DNA of 64,000 bases from Spiroplasma floricola 23-6 (GTDB taxonomy: Bacteria; Bacillota_I; Bacilli_A; Mycoplasmatales; Mycoplasmataceae): positions 868,001 to 932,000 of the forward strand of contig NZ_CP025057.1 in the NCBI RefSeq assembly GCF_002813555.1. Reading direction: 5' to 3'. Position 1 is the stretch's first letter; every line of letters starts with the position of its first letter. Under the pieces are notes generated by a model. It had not been told where the DNA came from. It did no database searches and was given only the letters and a program-made list of their open reading frames with translations. Shown in pieces: positions 312 through 18,058 of the stretch. The position numbers and the translations under genes are program-made.

Positions 312-2909
312 TTAATTATCTTTTCAAATATCACAGCAAATTTTTGTTAATTGTTCAGTTCTTTTTTTAATATTATCCTCATAAAAGTTATTAAGTTCTC
401 TTAAATCCATTAATTCTAAAGTTTCATCTTTATAACCTTTAAACTGATAAGAGCTGAGGATTTTGCCTTCCTTTGAATACTCATAAATTTTCTTATTAAA
501 AGTTTTATTTTGAATTTTTGAATTTGATTTACCTTCAATACACATTAAATTACCTAATTTATTTAAAAATTTAGTTTTTCATCTTTTAGCTTCTTCTAAT
601 GATAATTCGTGATCACTTCATACTATTATATCTTGATATCATTCCTCATTAGGTTTTTGAGGAATTATATGTTCTAATGTTCTTTTTTCATATTTAGTGT
701 CAATATAATTATAATCGTCTCCAAAAAAGTCCTTATTATTCGATAAGTAATTCTCAATTCTATATCCAATAAGAGTTGCTATCTTATTGGATATATCATA
801 CTCTCTCAAACTATTTCTAAATCTTTCTAAAGAAATTCTATTATTTGATTCATCTTCATGTTCACCTATAAATAATTTTCTTATAAAATCAGGAGTTATA
901 ATTCCATTTCCTAGCTCTTTTAAAATATTAAAATCAATATATTGAGAAAGGGATTGACCTTTATAATTAGAAACTTGAAGTCTAACTTCATATTTTTCAA
1001 TTTCAAAAAATACTCTTCTTATCTGTTTTGTAATTTCTTTATTTGTCTTATTATTTTCATAATCAAAATTTATTAAAATTTTCATTAATAGAGGATAATA
1101 AATTTCTCTGCCTTCTAACATAGTTAGAATATCTTTAAATCTATATGTTAAGGAGTCTGCTTTATTAAATGAATTAGAGTCTGAAACAGAAATATACATA
1201 TCAATGTATTTACCTAAATCTATAAATAACTTTCTAGATTCTTCAAATGATTTTAAGTTTCTATTATTAATAAAATCAGAAATCAAAGTTTCTTTAAAAC
1301 TTTCAAATGCTGATTTTGTTGCATATTGTTTTTCTTTTAATCTTAAAAATACATTTATAAAACTATCCATTTTTGATGTAGGATTCTTAAAATCTTTAAA
1401 TTTTGAAGTAATTTCTTCTTCAAAAGTAAATTGTAACTGCTGTTCATGTTTATCTACTATTTGTTGATCTATATGCATAAACAAGAAGTTTTTTATTAAA
1501 TCCATAGTAGAGAGTTGCAAAGATTTAGTATTCAAGTTTTCAAATAAAGTATATTCATTTGATATATGATCTGTAGTAACTGAAAGAATTAGCTGTTCAT
1601 AAATTTTTTTTAAAAGATCATTTAAACCTGCTTCATTAAAATCTTTAATAATATTAAAAACTGCAACTGAGTTTGTAAATACTGAAGTTGTAGTTTCTTG
1701 AATTTGTTCACCTTTTATAATATTATTAAATGTTCTAAAATCACTGTTAGTATCTATTCTTTTAAAAGTTTTTGATATTGCATTTTCATCATACTGATCA
1801 AGAACAAATAAATTATATAAAACATCAGGTATTTTATAGTCCTTCATTAAATATACATTATATATTTGTCTTAAAATTATTAAACAAGTTGTTAATCTTT
1901 GTTGTCCATCAATTAATTTATTATTCAATCTGTCTCTAAGAGGCACAAATAATACAATACCTCCAATATAATGATATTTTCCTTCCTTTAGATTTAGAAT
2001 GTCATTTAAAAGACCTGTAGCAAGTTTTTGTTCTCAATTATATTGTCTTTGATAAATAGGAATTGCAATTTTTGAGTTATCTCCTGTTTTTAAAAAATAA
2101 TGATTTATAAATTCTCCAAAAGAGTAATTTTTTGAGTAAATCAGCTCTTCATTATTTCAATTCATAGGTAAATTTATAATATTTTCTTTATTAACTTTAA
2201 ATTTTTTAAAGCTATCATTAATAAACATATTCTCTATATCATTAATTTTGTAATAATTCGTTCATTCCTTTTCAAAAATATATTTATAGCAGGCTTGAAT
2301 TATTTTTTTATTATCATAAATCCCTTTTACTTTATATGTTGTTAGCAATCTTCTAAGAGAATCATTATTTTTTATATCATCTAATCCTTCAATTAAAAAA
2401 TCAGCTTTATTATCACATTTAGAAATAGCTTTATTAATTCTATTTTTTATATTTTCATCGTTATCATCATAAGTTAATTCATTTTGTATTAATGTAGCAA
2501 TTGAAAATCCATTATAAAAAGTATGTTCATTTTTAAAACTATATTCAGTATAGCCATTTAATCTTTTTTCAATAATTTCTCTTGCTTGTCTTTCTAAATC
2601 TTCATCAAAACTATATTCAACAATAAAATCATATTCAAAAAAGGTATCTAGCTTTTCAATAAATTCAGCATTTTTTAACTTAATAAATCCTAATGTACAT
2701 CAAACTCTTAGAATTTGCACAAATGTACTTCTATCTCCTTTTTTAATTATGTTGGTATCTTTTTTATTTATTTTAACTTTTAACTCTTTTCCAGATGGAG
2801 TAAGAGAAAAATTTACTATGTCTCCTTTTTTAAAACAACTAGTTTTTATATAATCATTTATATAACTATTAAAATTTGTTGCAATATTTCATGCGCTTCC
2901 TGATCTCAT
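312..2909 (-). CDS. DUF262/DUF1524 (GmrSD-type) restriction-like protein with long N-terminal extension
   Basis: Joining across TGA(Trp) codons gives one 865-residue frame. Residues about 282-292 read IPIYQRQYNWE and about 334 DGQQRLTT, the two signature motifs of DUF262, a ParB/Srx-fold NTPase. Near residue 745 lies LEHIIPQ, followed later by GNLM and a conserved Asn/Lys-rich tail, which is the HNH-type DUF1524 nuclease. In GmrSD-family proteins this pair forms a modification-dependent or phage-directed endonuclease. About 280 N-terminal residues precede DUF262 and match nothing I recognise; they could be a DNA-recognition module. The ATG overlaps the stop of the methyltransferase gene as TAATG, so the two are translationally coupled. 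The DUF calls are secure; the role as the nuclease of an R-M system is inferred. Confidence 0.85.
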
Positions 2910-4162
2910 TAATTCTTTTCCTCTTTCATCATATTATTGAAAAGAGCTACCAATACGTTTACTACAATTGAATTTCCTGCTTGTCTATAAAGTATATCTT
3001 TTCGTTGATTAAATACTGTAGCCTTTTCAAAGTCTTCTTCTGTAAATCCCATTAATAAAAAAGTTTCTCTAGGAGTTAAAAATCTGTAATTGGATTTGCC
3101 CGTTTTTTCTAACTCTTTTATTATTTCTGTTTCCTTGAGAACAACAATTCCTGCGTTAGGATGTCTATCTTGTTTTGTTGTGATAGTTCTTACAAAACTA
3201 AGATATCTATATTCTCCCTTTATAACCTGAAACACTTTTGGATTCTCTTTGTACATTTTTCTTCTACTTGGTGTATTATTTGGTGAACAATTTTTAGCTT
3301 CTTTTTCATATTTTTTTATTGAATAATTAACTTTTAAAATTTTTTTTAATTGTTTATTAATATTAAATTCCTTAGATACATCTTCAATATCATCTGAATC
3401 ATTTATAAAATTTTCTATATCCAATAAAATTTCTTCATCTTTTAAAATACTAATTGCAAATACTCTTTTTCTTTTTTGTGGTATTCCATACTTACTTGCA
3501 TCTAATATATAAGTTTTTGTTTCATAACCTAACGAGGCTAAAAACTCTAATCATTCAATATAATCATCTTTATGCTTATTAGAAATCATATTTTTGACGT
3601 TTTCCAATAATAAATATTTAGGCAACTTATTAAGCTTTTTTAACTCTTTAAGTATTCTTTCAATTTCTCATAACAAACCACTTCTAGTATTTGAACCTTT
3701 TGCCATTCCTTGATTAAAACCATGAAAACTTCCTGCAACAGATAAATCTTGACAGGGAAAAGAATAAGTTAAAAGATCAAAATCACCAATATTATTAATA
3801 AGTCTATTACCAGTTATTTCTAAAATACTTCCTTGATTATTACAATTTATTAAAGAACTATATAATAACTCTCTAATTTTTCTAGGCTGTCTTAATACAA
3901 ACTTTTCATCAATTGGTTTTTTTCCATCATTTGAAAGAGTATATTTTGTAATGAAATTATTAATTTCTTCATCACTTAATTTTTCAGCTACATTTTTATT
4001 ATTATGATGTATTGCATTATAACTTAAATTTGCTCAAATATCTCATTCACTTGTTCCAGCTATTTCATAGTCAAATCCCACTATATTCTTTTTAAGTATT
4101 TCTAAAGCTTTATGTTGCGCTCCTATACCTGCAAATGTTTCAAATACTCTTAATTTACTCAT
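2909..4162 (-). CDS. DNA (cytosine-5-)-methyltransferase
   Basis: This 417-residue protein shows the ordered C5-methyltransferase motifs: FETFAGIGA (motif I, SAM binding), FPCQDLS (motif IV, catalytic Pro-Cys), LLENVKN (motif VI, ENV), PQKRKRVF (motif VIII), LTPRETFLLMGF (motif IX) and QAGNSIVVNVL (motif X). It transfers a methyl group from SAM to cytosine in a target sequence that cannot be read from the protein. The target-recognition region between VIII and IX is of ordinary length, so it acts alone. It sits between a helicase-nuclease gene and a DUF262 nuclease gene and overlaps the latter, so its likely job is to protect host DNA from that machinery. The RBS is GGGGT, 8 bases before the ATG. 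Confidence 0.93.
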
Positions 4163-4170
4163 AAAAAAAT

Positions 4171-4219
4171 ACCCCGTTAAGAGTAATTTTATTGTTTTTT
4201 TTTTTTTTTTGCAAGGGGT
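4171..4219 (-). promoter_or_regulatory. A16 tract and possible Shine-Dalgarno sequestering stem before the methyltransferase
   Basis: The 60-base gap between the helicase stop (4223) and the methyltransferase ATG (4162) holds sixteen consecutive A on the minus strand (plus T at 4195-4210). It is flanked by ACCCC (4219-4215) and GGGGT (4175-4171). GGGGT is the methyltransferase Shine-Dalgarno sequence, so the two flanks could pair and hide it. Homopolymers of this length mutate readily by slippage and can act as expression switches in Mollicutes. The switching role is inferred. Confidence 0.45.
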
Positions 4220-4222
4220 TAA

Positions 4223-7200
4223 TTAGCTAATTTTAAAAATAAATTTGGGTTTTTTATGGGATTTTTTTTCAGACCCATTTTCTACTTCTTTTCTATCAAT
4301 TATTTTTTCAATTTTTCCAATAAATACTTTAGCTTTATCTCCCTTTTCATTTCTAAGTTTTTCATCTGAAAAGAATACATAAGTTTTATATTCCTTTAAA
4401 TTCATCATATTTCTTTGCATTTCAGTAATTTTGTCCATATCAAATTTTCAATCATCAGGAGTATCTCAATATAAAGTTTGATTTTCATAATCATAAATAT
4501 TACCGTGTCCAAATTTTGTGGAAATTGTATTAGTTGAAGCATCAATTGCAAAGATTTTATCTTCTTTATTACTAATAATTCCCCCTACACCTTTACCTTT
4601 AAATTGATTGTCTTTTACTGTAATAGAGCATAATGCTTGAAATTGATTATGATTTAAATGTAAACCTTTAAAACTTTCAATTTCTTCAGTTAGACTTGTT
4701 GTTAATAATTTTTCATTGTTTAATTTAAATTTAAGTAAATATTTAATTTCTTTTAAAAAAAACTTATTTTCTATATTAAAAATAGTTTCAAAAGCTAAAT
4801 TTAAATCATAATAAAAATTATCTTGTTTTGTTGGTGAATGATGAAAAGAAACTAAAAATATTTTATTAATAAGCTTATTATTTGAAATCTTTTTATTTTC
4901 TATTATTTCTAGAATCTCTTTAATTAAGTTCTTATTATTAAAAAACATAAATTGGCGAATTCTTGTTTGGTTATTAGTTGTTAAGTTTTCTCTGAAATAT
5001 GCTTTTTTAAGATTATAAAATTCATAGATACTGACTTCCTTATCTCTAAAAAATGATTCATAATCTTCAAATACTCCAGTTCTATATTCATCAATAATTG
5101 ATTTATATAAATTATGTTTTTCATATTCTTTAAGTTGATTCAAAAAATCTTCTTTGATAATTTTTGTAAGTATAAAATTAGAATCACCTGGTAAAAAATC
5201 GTTAATATGATTTATGTTTTTCTCAAACTCATTTATTTTTAAGTCATTTGTAAGAACATTAAAAGCAGTTAAAGGATTATAATTTTTATTTACTTTAATA
5301 TCAACATTATTTACAAAATCATATATTTGCAATCTCTTGTCAGTAACTTTTCTCATTCCTCTACCAAGTTGTTGTAAATAAATAAGAACAGAAGCAGTTG
5401 GTCTTAAAAACATTATAGTATCTATTTCTGGAACATCAACACCTTCGTTTAAAATATCTCTTACACAAAGAAAGTTTATTTTTCCTCTTCTAAAATCATT
5501 TAATATTTCTTTTCTTTTCTCTTTTGTTATTTTTTCAGAAACTAAAAATTCACTTCTTTCTCCCTTTTCATTTAAAAAATTTGATAAATCACGTGCATGC
5601 TCTATTGAATTACAAAATAATATGGCTTTAACATTTCTAGAATTTGTACCTATATATTTTTGTATATTTTTATAAACAAATTCATGTCTTTTTTTAATAT
5701 TTAAAACTTTGTTTAATTTATCAGTTTTTAGAATATCTATGTTTGTCAAATCAGTTGAATCATCTTTTATAAAAAAGTAATCAAAATCACATAATAACTC
5801 TTTTTCAATAGCTTCAAATAATCTTATATTTGCTGCATATTCATCATCAAAAAAAATATTTACATTTATATTATCAGTTCTTTCTGGGGTTGCAGTTAGG
5901 CCAAATACTTGTTTAGTATTTGGAAGTACTAAAGAATATATTTCCTTAAATGTATCTGCTTGAACATGATGAGCTTCATCAAAAACTACAATATCAAATT
6001 TTTTATTTCTTAATTTTTCTTTTCTTCTTATTAAAGTTTCTGTATTTGTAAATATTCAATTTTCTTTTGATAAATCAGCATCATTATTTCTACTATCATA
6101 AAATTCCAATCCAAAATCATATATTTCAAGATAATCTCTAAAGTCTTTAACAGTTTGATCAAGTATTTCTTTGGAAGGTGCTATATATAATAAACTTGGT
6201 TCTTCTATTTCTCAAAGATTTGCAAGAGCTTCGTATGTAAAAATCATAGTTTTAGTTTTACCTGTTCCTGTTGCCATAACAAGCAAATGTTTATTTTTTC
6301 CATTATTTACCCTATTTAAAATATTGTCAACAACTTCTTTTTGATAACTATATGGAGTTATAAATTTATTTTTTGCATTTATTCTTTCAAAATGCTTTGA
6401 CCTATTATCTTCATCTTCTCATATAGAATTATTAATTTCTTCTCATTTATCATTTTCAATTTTTTGACGTAGTAGTATATTTTGAATTTGTTCATGATCT
6501 TTTATGTCTATAAAATCAGTTGAATTAAATAATTGATCAAACTCTTCTCTATAATCTTCAATAATTTTTTTATCTTTAAATTCACTAATTCTTAAATTAT
6601 GTTCATTGCCAGTTATTAAACCAGTTTTTGTAAAATTACTACTTCCAATATATAAAGAACTAAAGTTATTTTCTCTATTAAATAAATATGACTTTATATG
6701 TAATCTTTTTGCACTTTTTTCAAACAGATTTTCTATTTTAACTTGAATTATCTTATTATATTCATTAGCTAGTTTTATTAAATCTTCTAAAGCTAAGAAC
6801 TTTGAAGTTCCATCATATGTTGTTGTTATTATTTTTAATGATTCTATATTTGGATTATTTACTAAAATATCTTCTAACTTATTTATCATGTGTTTTGAGA
6901 TAAATGGTGAGATCATTTGAATATCATTTGAAGATTCAAATTCTTTTTTTAAATTAGATCATAACTTATTTTTAATAAGTTTGTTTATACTTATTTGATC
7001 TAAACTATTATACTTAACATCTTTTTTTATTGCTTTTAATGAAGTTCATTGTTCCTCATTAGTTAAATTATTTAAAAACTTTATTTTATCTTCTATTGTT
7101 TGAAAATTAGATAATTTATCTTTAATTTGTCTAGAAAACTGATTTATTAATCAGTCATCATCAACATTTTCTAATTCTCTAATATCATCTTTTTGAAAAA

Positions 7201-7258
7201 ACTGCAGCTCGTTTTCTTTAATTAAAAGATCATATATTCCCTTTTTAAACTTTTCCAT
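4223..7258 (-). CDS. PLD-nuclease / SF2 helicase / DUF3427-like fusion protein
   Basis: The joined frame encodes 1011 residues. The N-terminal third contains a phospholipase-D-type nuclease signature: HIK, then about 12 residues later GSSNFTKTG and NEHNLR (roughly residues 180-215). The middle is an SF2 helicase: Walker A ATGTGKTKT, DEAH in FDEAHHV, motif III-like LTATPERTD, and motif VI QQLGRGMRK near residue 630. The last 350 or so residues end with a LYWDTP motif and an FIGKI-type strand that resemble DUF3427, found on PLD-DEAD proteins of bacterial defence loci. ATP-driven DNA translocation coupled to cleavage is expected by family analogy. It is the first gene of the cassette with the methyltransferase and the DUF262 protein. 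Confidence 0.85.
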
Positions 7259-9273: not shown

Positions 9274-10008
9274 TTATTTTTTAAAAATAAATGTAACTGT
9301 TTTTACATTTAAATTTATTTTACTCCCATAATTAATAATAAAAACTCCATCTTTAAATCCTTTTGAAGCTAAAATATCACAAAATTCTTGTACTCCATAT
9401 CAAGTTAATTTGAATTCTTGAGTTTCTTTTAATTCATTATTGATGAAGTAATCAATTTGATTAATTGTGTATTGCTCTATTCAATTAATTTCTTTTGATC
9501 AGTTTTTTACTAAAACATCTTGATTTTCGACATAATGAGTAGATTCATGTTTTGATCCTGCTCTAAATTCAATTGGCAATATTAAATCGATTATAAGAGT
9601 TCCCTTGTCAGTTAAAGATTGATAAAAGTTATCTAATACTTTTAAAGCTTTTTGTCTTGTTTCTAGCAAGTTAAAACTTGCATTAGGCATTATTATATAT
9701 TCATATGTATTTTTTTCAATATAATTCTCCAAATCTTGGCAAATTAAAGTTGCTTTTAAGTTTTCTTTTTTTAGATTTTCACTGCAAATATCAATCATTT
9801 CTTGAGATTTGTCAATTCCTACAATATCTACTTTATATTTTAAAAGTGGAATAAATAACCTTCCATTTCCAACACCAGCTTCAAGTATTTTTCCATCAAT
9901 TGGTAGTAATAAAGACTTGTAAAACTCTAAATCTTTGTCAATACTTGTTCCTGGAGGCTTTGTTGCATTGTAAATTAAACTACTTATTTTCTTATAATGA
10001 TTTTCCAT
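9274..10008 (-). CDS. Class I SAM-dependent methyltransferase
   Basis: The frame (244 residues after one TGA=Trp) has the Rossmann SAM-binding motif ILEAGVGNGRLFIPL (residues about 42-56). An acidic residue follows at the end of strand 2 (VGIDKSQEM), then CQDLENY and the post-motif strand YEYIIMPNASFNLLE, typical of methyltransferase domain 25/11 proteins. The N-terminal YNATKPPGTSID resembles small-molecule methyltransferases of Gram-positives. The substrate is unknown. It is preceded by a gene-poor kilobase and appears to be transcribed alone. Confidence 0.8.
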
Positions 10009-10715
10009 GAAAATTCCTCAACTTTTTTTCAAAATTCTTTTAAAAATAATAACATAAAATAAATCAGAATTTTTCTAAACTATATAATTTATTTATAGGG
10101 TGCAGGGTGGGTTTCGAAGAAAGGCTAATAAAAATTAAAAATAAGAAATTCAAGTTTATGATTACAATGTAATGTTTTCATTAATAACTTTAATTTTTAA
10201 TATAAGTAAGATTTAATTAACTCTAATTAAATATTGCTGAAATAAATAAAAATGGATTATAAAGTCTATTCCTTATATCTTTTAGAGCAAGAAATATTCC
10301 TACCAAATATGTTTCATGATTACCTGATATGTAATCCGTTTAAAAATAAGTTAGCAATATATAATAAATTGAACTGTATAAAATATTTTTAACTGCCAGA
10401 CAACATTTTTTAAAAGAATCAAGTGAAATAGATTAATCTGTGAAATAAAGAATTTCAAGTACCATAAATTTTTCTTAAATCATAAAAGTTAAATTTTTAA
10501 CAAGAAATTTAAAAAATATTGAAAATAGATAGAAAATACAGAAAATAATAAAACTTGCAATTAAACACACAAATTCATATATCAATTAGCATGCATAATA
10601 CCCACTGGTTGATGTTTGATCTAATTTGAATTTGTATTTAAATGTATCAGTAAACCATATGATAAATTAAATTATGTAAACTATATTCAAAATAAAAGAT
10701 TTATAAATAAATTTT

Positions 10716-18041: not shown

Positions 18042-18058
18042 TTTTTTTTTTTTTTTTT
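18042..18058. repeat. T17 homopolymer
   Basis: Seventeen consecutive T on the plus strand. It lies between the decayed copy B and the duplicated leader upstream of it, at a position where it would sit in the 5' region of copy B. No such tract is present in the sister leader at 19.5 kb. Confidence 0.8.

What the first reader, a model, noticed from the sequence alone, without database searches (positions are those of the whole stretch)
312..7258. Three-gene defence cassette: PLD-helicase-DUF3427-like protein, C5 methyltransferase, DUF262/DUF1524 nuclease
The three genes run in one direction; the last two overlap as TAATG. ATP-dependent C5 systems with PLD nuclease plus helicase are known (NgoAVII and CglI types), and DUF262/DUF1524 proteins are known as type IV (GmrSD-like) nucleases. 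Here PLD nuclease and helicase are fused in one chain and a GmrSD-type protein is tied to the methyltransferase. Two independent nuclease chemistries with one protecting methylase suggest a layered or unusual restriction system.
Basis: partly seen in the sequence, partly recalled or inferred. Interest (0 to 1): 0.8.

Follow-up and report, generated by a model that had tools for sequence, protein, structure and literature searches.

The report
Switchable restriction operon with borrowed nucleases
A wall-less bacterium carries a DNA-marking enzyme linked to a cutting enzyme whose cutting part differs among its relatives, apparently under a repeat-based on/off switch, next to a second cutter that looks built to find marked DNA.

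Summary
In genetic code 4 the minus strand carries a PLD-helicase (1011 aa), a C5 methyltransferase (417 aa) and a GmrSD-type protein (865 aa); the last two overlap as TAATG. (1) The PLD-helicase is SauUSI-type: its C-terminus is predicted to be an SRA domain, the modified-cytosine reader of Type IV enzymes, not the B3 domain of NgoAVII/CglI. It also occurs alone. (2) The methyltransferase's usual partner is an unnamed N-terminal domain of the GmrSD protein ('WIT': W-x-I-x-T ... Q). In relatives WIT is a separate gene, or fused to GmrSD, HNH_2 or NOV_C modules; 18 of 20 WIT hits in a 395-genome scan lie within 3 kb of this methyltransferase, the other two are remnants. I infer a methylation-blocked restriction enzyme with an exchangeable nuclease. 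(3) 29 of 39 methyltransferase loci read carry a slippage-prone repeat (controls 3 of 99); the window has TTGC-A16-CAA-TAAAAT. Best reading: a phase-variable R-M pair plus a Type IV companion. Target site, cleavage and switching are untested.

The parts
4223..7258 (-). PLD nuclease - SF2 helicase - coupler - SRA protein, 1011 aa (P0003), SauUSI-type
   Evidence: closest solved chain 7clg (SauUSI) E 4.8e-53
6530..6952 (-). PLD-type nuclease domain (residues 103-243) with H187-x-K189 ... G205-S206-x-N208
   Evidence: RE_NgoFVII 7.7e-10, PLDc_2 1.1e-6; these residues invariant in 12 of 12 rows
5351..6361 (-). SF2 helicase/ATPase core (residues 300-636)
   Evidence: ResIII, DEAD, Helicase_C
4226..4756 (-). 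C-terminal target-recognition domain (residues 835-1011), predicted SRA fold
   Evidence: AF2 pLDDT 83.8, pTM 0.77; Foldseek MspJI/AspBHI/LpnPI; VIA-align 7clg_A Z 9.7, rmsd 2.9, 118 aligned; rows 1-46 are, as I read titles and ranges, SRA-domain proteins, row 47 Z 4.0
4186..4214 (-). putative slippage-prone promoter TTGC-A16-CAA-TAAAAT (spacer 17 counted from TTGCAA) upstream of the methyltransferase; the A-run is 4195-4210
   Evidence: A/T runs of 15-17 are a separate class in the stretches of this genome that were read (28 in 464 kb, none of 11-14); A/T runs of 15-18 upstream of 15 of 39 relatives
2909..4162 (-). C5 cytosine DNA methyltransferase, 417 aa (P0002)
   Evidence: DNA_methylase 1.4e-54; best solved relatives 4dkj and 8c56, aligned over 4-243 and 357-411 but not between; PCQ, ENV, QxRxR, GNSI present
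312..2909 (-). WIT-GmrSD protein, 865 aa (P0001), start overlapping the methyltransferase stop as TAATG
2550..2909 (-). WIT domain core (residues 1-120), proposed DNA-recognition module
   Evidence: alignment A1; profile comparisons with reversed controls; AF2; weak winged-helix resemblance
1479..2078 (-). GmrSD_N / DUF262 (residues 278-477), IDGQQR motif
   Evidence: 1.9e-26 for the whole protein; motif
342..821 (-). GmrSD_C / DUF1524 HNH-type nuclease (residues 697-856), LEHIIPQ motif
   Evidence: 3.8e-15 for the whole protein; motif

Best explanation
The operon holds two restriction layers. Layer 1 is a restriction-modification pair: the C5 methyltransferase marks host sites, and the WIT-GmrSD protein, using its WIT domain to find the same sites and its DUF262/DUF1524 module to cut, destroys DNA that lacks the mark. 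The WIT domain is the constant part; the nuclease module is exchangeable (GmrSD, HNH_2, NOV_C). Methyltransferase and WIT-nuclease are probably switched together by slippage of an A16 tract inside their own promoter and stay coupled through the overlapping start. Layer 2 is the upstream SauUSI-type PLD-helicase-SRA enzyme, an ATP-dependent Type IV nuclease that attacks DNA carrying modified cytosine in other contexts, such as that of phages that evade layer 1. Shown: gene order, overlap, homologies, exchange of modules, repeat tracts. Predicted: the SRA fold. Inferred: WIT as recognition domain, block of cutting by the mark, switching, division of labour.
For: Linkage: 26 of 33 genomes with a P0001 hit have it within 3 kb of the methyltransferase hit. 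Minimal unit: I read 39 of the 86 methyltransferase genomes, taken mostly by rank, a few (such as G053, G095, G163, G048) also because they had a P0001 hit; 36 of the 39 have a WIT domain in the cluster (alignment A1), and 27 of the 39 have no PLD-helicase in it. Exchange of the nuclease on WIT: fused or split GmrSD; HNH_2 (G175, G179; G149 by alignment only); NOV_C (G076, G118). WIT groups match: 12 of 15 group pairs at E<=2.5e-4 (best 1.4e-17), the other three 5.6e-4, 0.038, 0.39; 30 reversed controls all E>=0.08. Specificity of linkage: a scan of 395 genomes of the class found WIT in 20, all of this order; 18 lie within 3 kb of a methyltransferase hit, two are remnants with many stops and no methyltransferase hit; G027 and G098 were not in the query alignment and show WIT-GmrSD beside the methyltransferase. 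Decay fits: in G150 the methyltransferase is intact while PLD-helicase and WIT-GmrSD are broken. SRA fold. PLD-helicase without the methyltransferase: G088; beside a methyltransferase remnant in G109. Switch: repeats in 29 of 39 methyltransferase loci against 3 of 99 control ORFs; poly-A and dinucleotide promoter tracts are known switches in mycoplasmas (vlp, vmm; PMC10502178 passages).
Against: No activity, target site or methylome is known. A k-mer test found no motif depleted only in the genomes with the methyltransferase; CpG is low with or without it (0.25 and 0.39 against 0.30 and 0.39). WIT's fold is weakly supported: mean pLDDT 62.5, W7 in the poorest stretch, Foldseek best E 1.0, best VIA Z 5.7. 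The window's own WIT group joins the HNH_2 and NOV_C groups only through the other groups (E 0.39 and 0.038), and its match to split group A covers only the second motif. In G110 and G169 the methyltransferase is out of frame at a (GA)n tract while the WIT-GmrSD frame is open: lethal for a plain R-M unless translation is coupled. G032 has methyltransferase and GmrSD but no WIT seen; G180 has neither partner; in G163 WIT is truncated. Seven of the 33 P0001 hits are not within 3 kb of a methyltransferase hit. Outside the Mollicutes the same methyltransferase family shows no WIT within three ORFs in 68 of 68 loci (some contigs end close by). Lower-ranked methyltransferase hits belong to another family with another partner. 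A mark reader beside a mark maker could conflict.
Confidence: 0.58

Rival explanations
1. One reading: one ATP-dependent R-M system of the NgoAVII/CglI kind in which both the PLD-helicase and the GmrSD protein are blocked by the same methylase.
For: M, PLD nuclease and SF2 helicase are the three functions of CglI/NgoAVII (PMC4267653 passages); the PLD domain matches RE_NgoFVII; one relative of the methyltransferase (L207, Abiotrophia defectiva) has an RE_NgoFVII protein next door by Pfam, and L183, L221 and L222 have neighbours that match the PLD-helicase profile; the PLD-helicase lies 64-206 bp from the methyltransferase in 12 genomes.
Against: Predicted SRA target domain rather than B3; no Z1 hit in P0003; single chain like SauUSI; the enzyme occurs without the methyltransferase (G088) and 27 of 39 methyltransferase loci read lack it.
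Confidence: 0.12
2. SspE-like licence model: WIT-GmrSD reads the methyltransferase's own 5mC mark and is activated by it to attack unmarked DNA, as SspE does with phosphorothioate marks.
For: P0001 and a relative match PADLOC SspE models (E 1.3e-9 and 8.8e-19); SspE is a DUF262/DUF1524 effector that depends on the host mark (PMC9646914 start of abstract; PMC10952713 passages); would tolerate methyltransferase-off states.
Against: Relatives with HNH_2 or NOV_C instead of DUF262 keep WIT and the methyltransferase, so DUF262 sensing is not needed; a weak SspE match is expected for any GmrSD protein (inference).
Confidence: 0.15
3. Defence island only: WIT-GmrSD is an ordinary Type IV enzyme against glucosylated or hydroxymethylated phage DNA and merely sits beside an orphan methyltransferase.
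For: Known GmrSD enzymes are modification-dependent (PMC4619093 start of abstract); GmrSD genes gather near other defence genes (same paper, passages).
Against: Linkage across the order, stop/start overlaps in 17 of 21 junctions as called and 2-3 bases in the other four, and 18 of 20 WIT hits beside this methyltransferase.
Confidence: 0.1

Closest known systems
SauUSI (Type IV, PLD - SF2 - coupler - SRA), PDB 7clg
   Same: Single chain, same domain order, aligned over 83-837 of the family profile, SRA fold predicted for the C-terminus; homologs in Tenericutes were noted in print (PMC7913695 passages)
   Different: About 60 extra N-terminal residues; encoded directly upstream of a C5 methyltransferase; modification dependence untested
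CglI / NgoAVII (C5 methyltransferase, B3-PLD endonuclease, SF2-Z1 ATPase)
   Same: C5 methyltransferase with PLD nuclease and SF2 motor in one operon
   Different: PLD and motor in one chain; predicted SRA not B3; no Z1 hit; adds a GmrSD gene
GmrSD / BrxU (DUF262 + DUF1524)
   Same: Both domains and the IDGQQR and EHI-P motifs
   Different: N-terminal WIT domain; gene overlaps a methyltransferase; proposed to be blocked by, not dependent on, modification
SspABCD-SspE
   Same: A DUF262/DUF1524 effector working with a host DNA mark
   Different: Mark is presumably 5mC, not phosphorothioate; WIT at the N-terminus
Metamycoplasma hominis DCM5 with its downstream 979-aa DUF1524 protein (PMC10305163)
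   Same: Probably an instance of the same pair; the authors suggested that DCM5 may take part in defence because of the neighbour (passages)
   Different: Described as an orphan, perhaps inactive methyltransferase lacking motif I; no WIT domain and no repeat switch in the passages read; I did not compare its sequence

Membership tests
SauUSI-type Type IV enzyme (P0003) | PLD HxK...GSxN nuclease motif | tested here: met
   Invariant H187, K189, G205, S206, N208 in 12 of 12 rows
SauUSI-type Type IV enzyme (P0003) | SF2 motor and coupler in the same chain | tested here: met
   Profile positions 83-837 align to 7clg 25-742, E 1.5e-89
SauUSI-type Type IV enzyme (P0003) | C-terminal SRA target domain | tested here: met
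   By predicted structure only: VIA Z 9.7 to 7clg, rmsd 2.9, 118 aligned; rows 1-46 SRA-domain proteins as I read them; sequence alone did not reach it
SauUSI-type Type IV enzyme (P0003) | Cleavage of 5mC/5hmC DNA only | not testable with these tools
   Needs enzyme assays
CglI/NgoAVII | Separate endonuclease and ATPase subunits | tested here: not met
   One open frame 4223-7258
CglI/NgoAVII | Z1 domain in the ATPase | tested here: not met
   No Z1 in P0003 at E<=1; not among the 25 of 31 families shown for its 12-member alignment; the model is in the library, as L226 matched it
CglI/NgoAVII | B3-type target domain | tested here: not met
   Predicted SRA fold in the C-terminal position instead; no separate search for a B3 domain elsewhere in the chain beyond Pfam
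GmrSD family | DUF262 + DUF1524 with DGQQR and (D/E)HIxP | tested here: met
GmrSD family | Modification-dependent cleavage | not testable with these tools
   Needs enzyme assays
Type II-like R-M pair | Methyltransferase and nuclease genes linked across genomes | tested here: met
   26 of 33; WIT in the methyltransferase cluster in 36 of 39 loci read and 18 of 20 scan hits
Type II-like R-M pair | Both enzymes act on the same site | not testable with these tools
   K-mer depletion gave no site
SspABCD-SspE | sspABCD modification genes | not tested
   No such search was run

The most novel reading that the evidence does not exclude
A phase-switched, mark-inverting restriction unit: in ON cells the methyltransferase and WIT-GmrSD destroy unmarked DNA; in OFF cells the SRA-PLD helicase, encoded upstream of the switch, destroys DNA that carries the ON-state mark. 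Phage grown on either half of the clone would then be restricted by the other half. It requires that the SRA enzyme is held off, or cannot read the mark, in ON cells.
Probability: 0.07. Interest if true: 0.88.

Novelty: new variant of a known kind. Interest (0 to 1): 0.6.

Why it matters
GmrSD proteins are usually filed as modification-dependent Type IV enzymes; here the module appears to serve as the interchangeable cutting end of a modification-blocked system, steered by an undescribed recognition domain. That gives a testable rule for finding the missing nucleases of 'orphan' Mollicute C5 methyltransferases, and links their switching repeats to defence rather than to gene regulation alone.

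Tried and rejected
Recognition site by motif depletion: O/E of 24 candidate motifs (some are each other's reverse complements) and CpG in 464 kb of the window's genome and 400 kb of G103 (both with the methyltransferase), 200 kb each of G091 and G124 (no hit at 1e-30); no motif was low only in the first two; CATG is low in all four.

CpG specificity by similarity to 4dkj/8c56 (M.MpeI as I recall; the table says only cytosine-specific methyltransferase): not supported; the target-recognition region does not align and carries its own conserved TxTTKQD stretch.

WIT fold: Foldseek gave nothing (best E 1.0); a second look gave winged-helix proteins (VPS25 Z 5.7, GntR 5.0, NanR 4.8, FadR 4.5) among unrelated rows. 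Kept only as a hint.

Named scan with P0002 alone found nothing; with the alignment A3 it gave 80 loci. Pfam and PADLOC gave no name to WIT, and PDB sequences no match to P0001.

NgoAVII/CglI membership and the DUF3427 label: see membership rows and observation check.

Relation of the other family's HNH neighbour to WIT or to the 342-aa partner in GHKL/Z1 loci: none found.
Full report
What is there. Under code 4 three genes run on the minus strand: PLD-helicase 4223-7258, C5 methyltransferase 2909-4162, GmrSD-type protein 312-2909, the last two joined as TAATG. The window lies in a single-contig genome of 1,284,130 bases, 99.8% complete.

How often. In 248 genomes of the order, P0001 had hits in 33, P0003 in 58, P0002 in 86 (cut-offs 1e-10, 1e-20, 1e-30). 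In 26 of 33 the P0001 hit lies within 3 kb of a methyltransferase hit; the misses are G047 (4.6 kb, but a second GmrSD gene is in the cluster), G035 (109 kb), G003 (no hit), and G044, G072, G087, G127 (other contigs). The PLD-helicase lies 64-206 bp from the methyltransferase in 12 genomes, in all of which a GmrSD gene is in the cluster (in G150 both nuclease genes are broken). They fall in five genera of one family (labels).

The helicase protein. It is closest to SauUSI and aligns to it from PLD to coupler; active-site residues are invariant in 12 of 12. Its last 177 residues fold with pLDDT 83.8; VIA-align rank 1 is SauUSI 803-940, Z 9.7, rmsd 2.9, 118 aligned; rows 1-46 are, as I read titles and residue ranges, SRA-domain proteins, and row 47 has Z 4.0. 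SauUSI's target domain is SRA 806-953 while CglI/NgoAVII have B3 and Z1 (PMC7913695 passages). So P0003 is of the 5mC-reading kind; that it needs 5mC is not shown. G088 has it without a methyltransferase hit and G109 beside a methyltransferase remnant; a more distant relative (37% identity) lies elsewhere in the window's own genome (585947-588277).

The WIT domain. Residues 1-275 of P0001 match no Pfam family at E<=1. I read 40 neighbourhoods: G088, and 39 of the 86 genomes with a methyltransferase hit, taken mostly by rank and a few (such as G053, G095, G163, G048) also because they had a P0001 hit. A W-x-I-x-T stretch and a later S-T-x-x-Q stretch recur at the N-terminus of GmrSD proteins, in separate 176-250-aa genes beside them, and at the N-terminus of other proteins after the methyltransferase. 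Alignment A1 (37 rows from 36 of the 39 loci) has T11 invariant and W7, Q65 in at least 90%; rows were first picked by eye. The three loci left out are G032 (no WIT seen), G180 (no partner) and G163 (truncated). Profile comparison of six groups, 15 pairs: 12 at E<=2.5e-4 (best 1.4e-17), the rest 5.6e-4, 0.038 and 0.39. The window's group against other fused GmrSD 1.6e-6, split B 6.1e-6, split A 2.5e-4 (second motif only), NOV 0.038, HNH 0.39, so it joins the last two only through the others; 30 reversed controls all E>=0.08. The non-GmrSD partners carry HNH_2 (L112 2e-6, L114 5.9e-7) or NOV_C (L097 2e-8, L098 6.5e-7); L116 was placed with the HNH group by alignment only. L156 shows the motif by eye and a weak NOV_C hit (0.0035); L155 shows the motif by eye only and no Pfam hit.

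Whole-genome check. The profile of A1 against 395 genomes of the class gave 20 hits, all in this order (up to 7 candidates scored per genome; how many of the 395 lie outside the order was not printed). Two (G064, G079) are remnants with many stops and no methyltransferase hit at 1e-30; the other 18 lie within 3 kb of a methyltransferase hit; one of these, G074, also has stops inside. Because A1 was built from methyltransferase neighbours, G027 and G098 matter most: both were outside A1 and both show WIT-GmrSD beside the methyltransferase.

Wider family. 80 named relatives of the methyltransferase were kept of 260. I counted 12 as Mollicutes by title (one of them, L187, titled Tenericutes, has no WIT). 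In the other 68 there was none, though some contigs end close by. Their partners differ; one example of each was tested by Pfam: DUF4420 and AIPR in L177, Vsr in L212, GHKL ATPase and Z1 in L226, RE_NgoFVII in L207 (listings, cut in the middle, and 71). TxTTK(Q/D)D is present in 69 of 83 methyltransferase ORFs.

Exchange in evolution. In the methyltransferase tree G103 (split WIT) sits in a 100/100 clade with G000, G150, G057 (fused; order inside weak), and G115 (split) in a 100/100 clade with G106, G153 (fused): fusion, splitting or replacement happened more than once. G103 keeps helicase and methyltransferase 71% and 77% identical to the window's while its best GmrSD match is 27%.

Switch. 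A run of 15-18 A (or T, in two) lies upstream of 15 of 39 methyltransferases, (AT)n of 12-16 units in 8, (GA)n in the coding part in 4, poly-G in 2: 29 of 39, against 3 of 99 control ORFs of 300-600 aa more than 5 kb away (Fisher p 4e-18). Cautions: the repeat classes were chosen after seeing them, for shortened frames the search was extended upstream, and related loci are not independent, so the p is only a guide. In the window TTGC-A16-CAA-TAAAAT gives a 17-base spacer; a match of this form occurs in 7 of 34 loci tested, with spacers of 15-19. In 464 kb of this genome A/T runs of 15-17 number 28, runs of 11-14 none. Poly-A and dinucleotide promoter tracts are known switches of mycoplasma surface genes (PMC10502178 passages), and CpG methyltransferases of M. 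agalactiae and others have poly-G or poly-GA tracts (PMC9465063 passages). That the tract here switches anything is inferred.

Function. Linkage, module exchange around WIT, overlap (17 of 21 junctions overlap as called, four are 2-3 bases apart) and decay (G150: methyltransferase whole, both nuclease genes broken) point to methyltransferase plus WIT-nuclease as an R-M pair, with the SRA enzyme as a companion for modified DNA. A Type IV GmrSD enzyme beside a modification system, BrxU with BREX, is a published analogue of such layering (title of PMC8565348; PMC10952713 passages). Against: methyltransferase frames out of register with open WIT-GmrSD frames in G110 and G169. The overlap could couple translation, or the two parts might act as subunits (NCBIfam has an 'N-terminal subunit' model that matches P0002 1-99 below its cut-off).

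Prior print. M. hominis DCM5 with its 979-aa DUF1524 neighbour is probably this pair; the authors took DCM5 as orphan and perhaps inactive but suggested a defence role (PMC10305163 passages). In the listings of nine searches (3 to 20 papers shown of 3 to 284) and the passages read I saw no description of the trio, of WIT, or of a GmrSD protein as the proven partner of a C5 methyltransferase; the library is open-access only and REBASE was not available.

Several counts and wordings were mended (group pairs 12 of 15; how loci were chosen; which residues are poorly predicted; which partner genes were Pfam-tested).

Noticed in passing
L292:6841-9135, L303:7888-10369, L297:9475-11995 and eight more loci (L293, L294, L295, L298, L300, L301, L302, L097:10371-12633): A sister methyltransferase family without the TxTTKQD stretch, which I take from recall to be the M.SssI/M.MpeI CpG type, adjoins in 11 loci a related protein of 369-435 aa (220 aa in L294, on the opposite strand); L295 and L300 are 98% identical. 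HNH_2 matched in 6 of 6 scanned (E 4.5e-8 to 0.005; only L303 clearly and L295 just above the curated cut-off): a candidate nuclease for methyltransferases held to be orphans. L296 and L299 show no such gene. L292_9 resembles M.SssI as I recall it; not checked by a call.
   Followed up: partly
L118 (about 9500-10200), L125 (1-650), L116 (19600-19987), L114: (GA)n tracts interrupt or end the methyltransferase frame; M. hominis DCM5, reported to lack motif I, may be the C-terminal part of such a gene.
   Followed up: partly
window 4195-4210 and 18042-18058: In 464 kb of this genome there are 28 A/T runs of 15-17 and none of 11-14; many lie close together in similar contexts, suggesting a set of slippage switches.
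   Followed up: partly
L306:5804-9726: G109 keeps an open 1050-aa PLD-helicase beside remnants (99 and 80 aa) of the methyltransferase.
   Followed up: no
L183, L186, L192, L204, L207 neighbourhoods: The same methyltransferase family recurs in Staphylococcus, Veillonella, Macrococcus and Abiotrophia with different neighbours (L186, Veillonella infantium, has a GmrSD-like gene on the other strand, E 1e-44), a natural set for testing partner exchange.
   Followed up: no
window 4171-4219: A short inverted repeat (ACCCC ... GGGGT on the plus strand) flanks the poly-A promoter of the methyltransferase.
   Followed up: no
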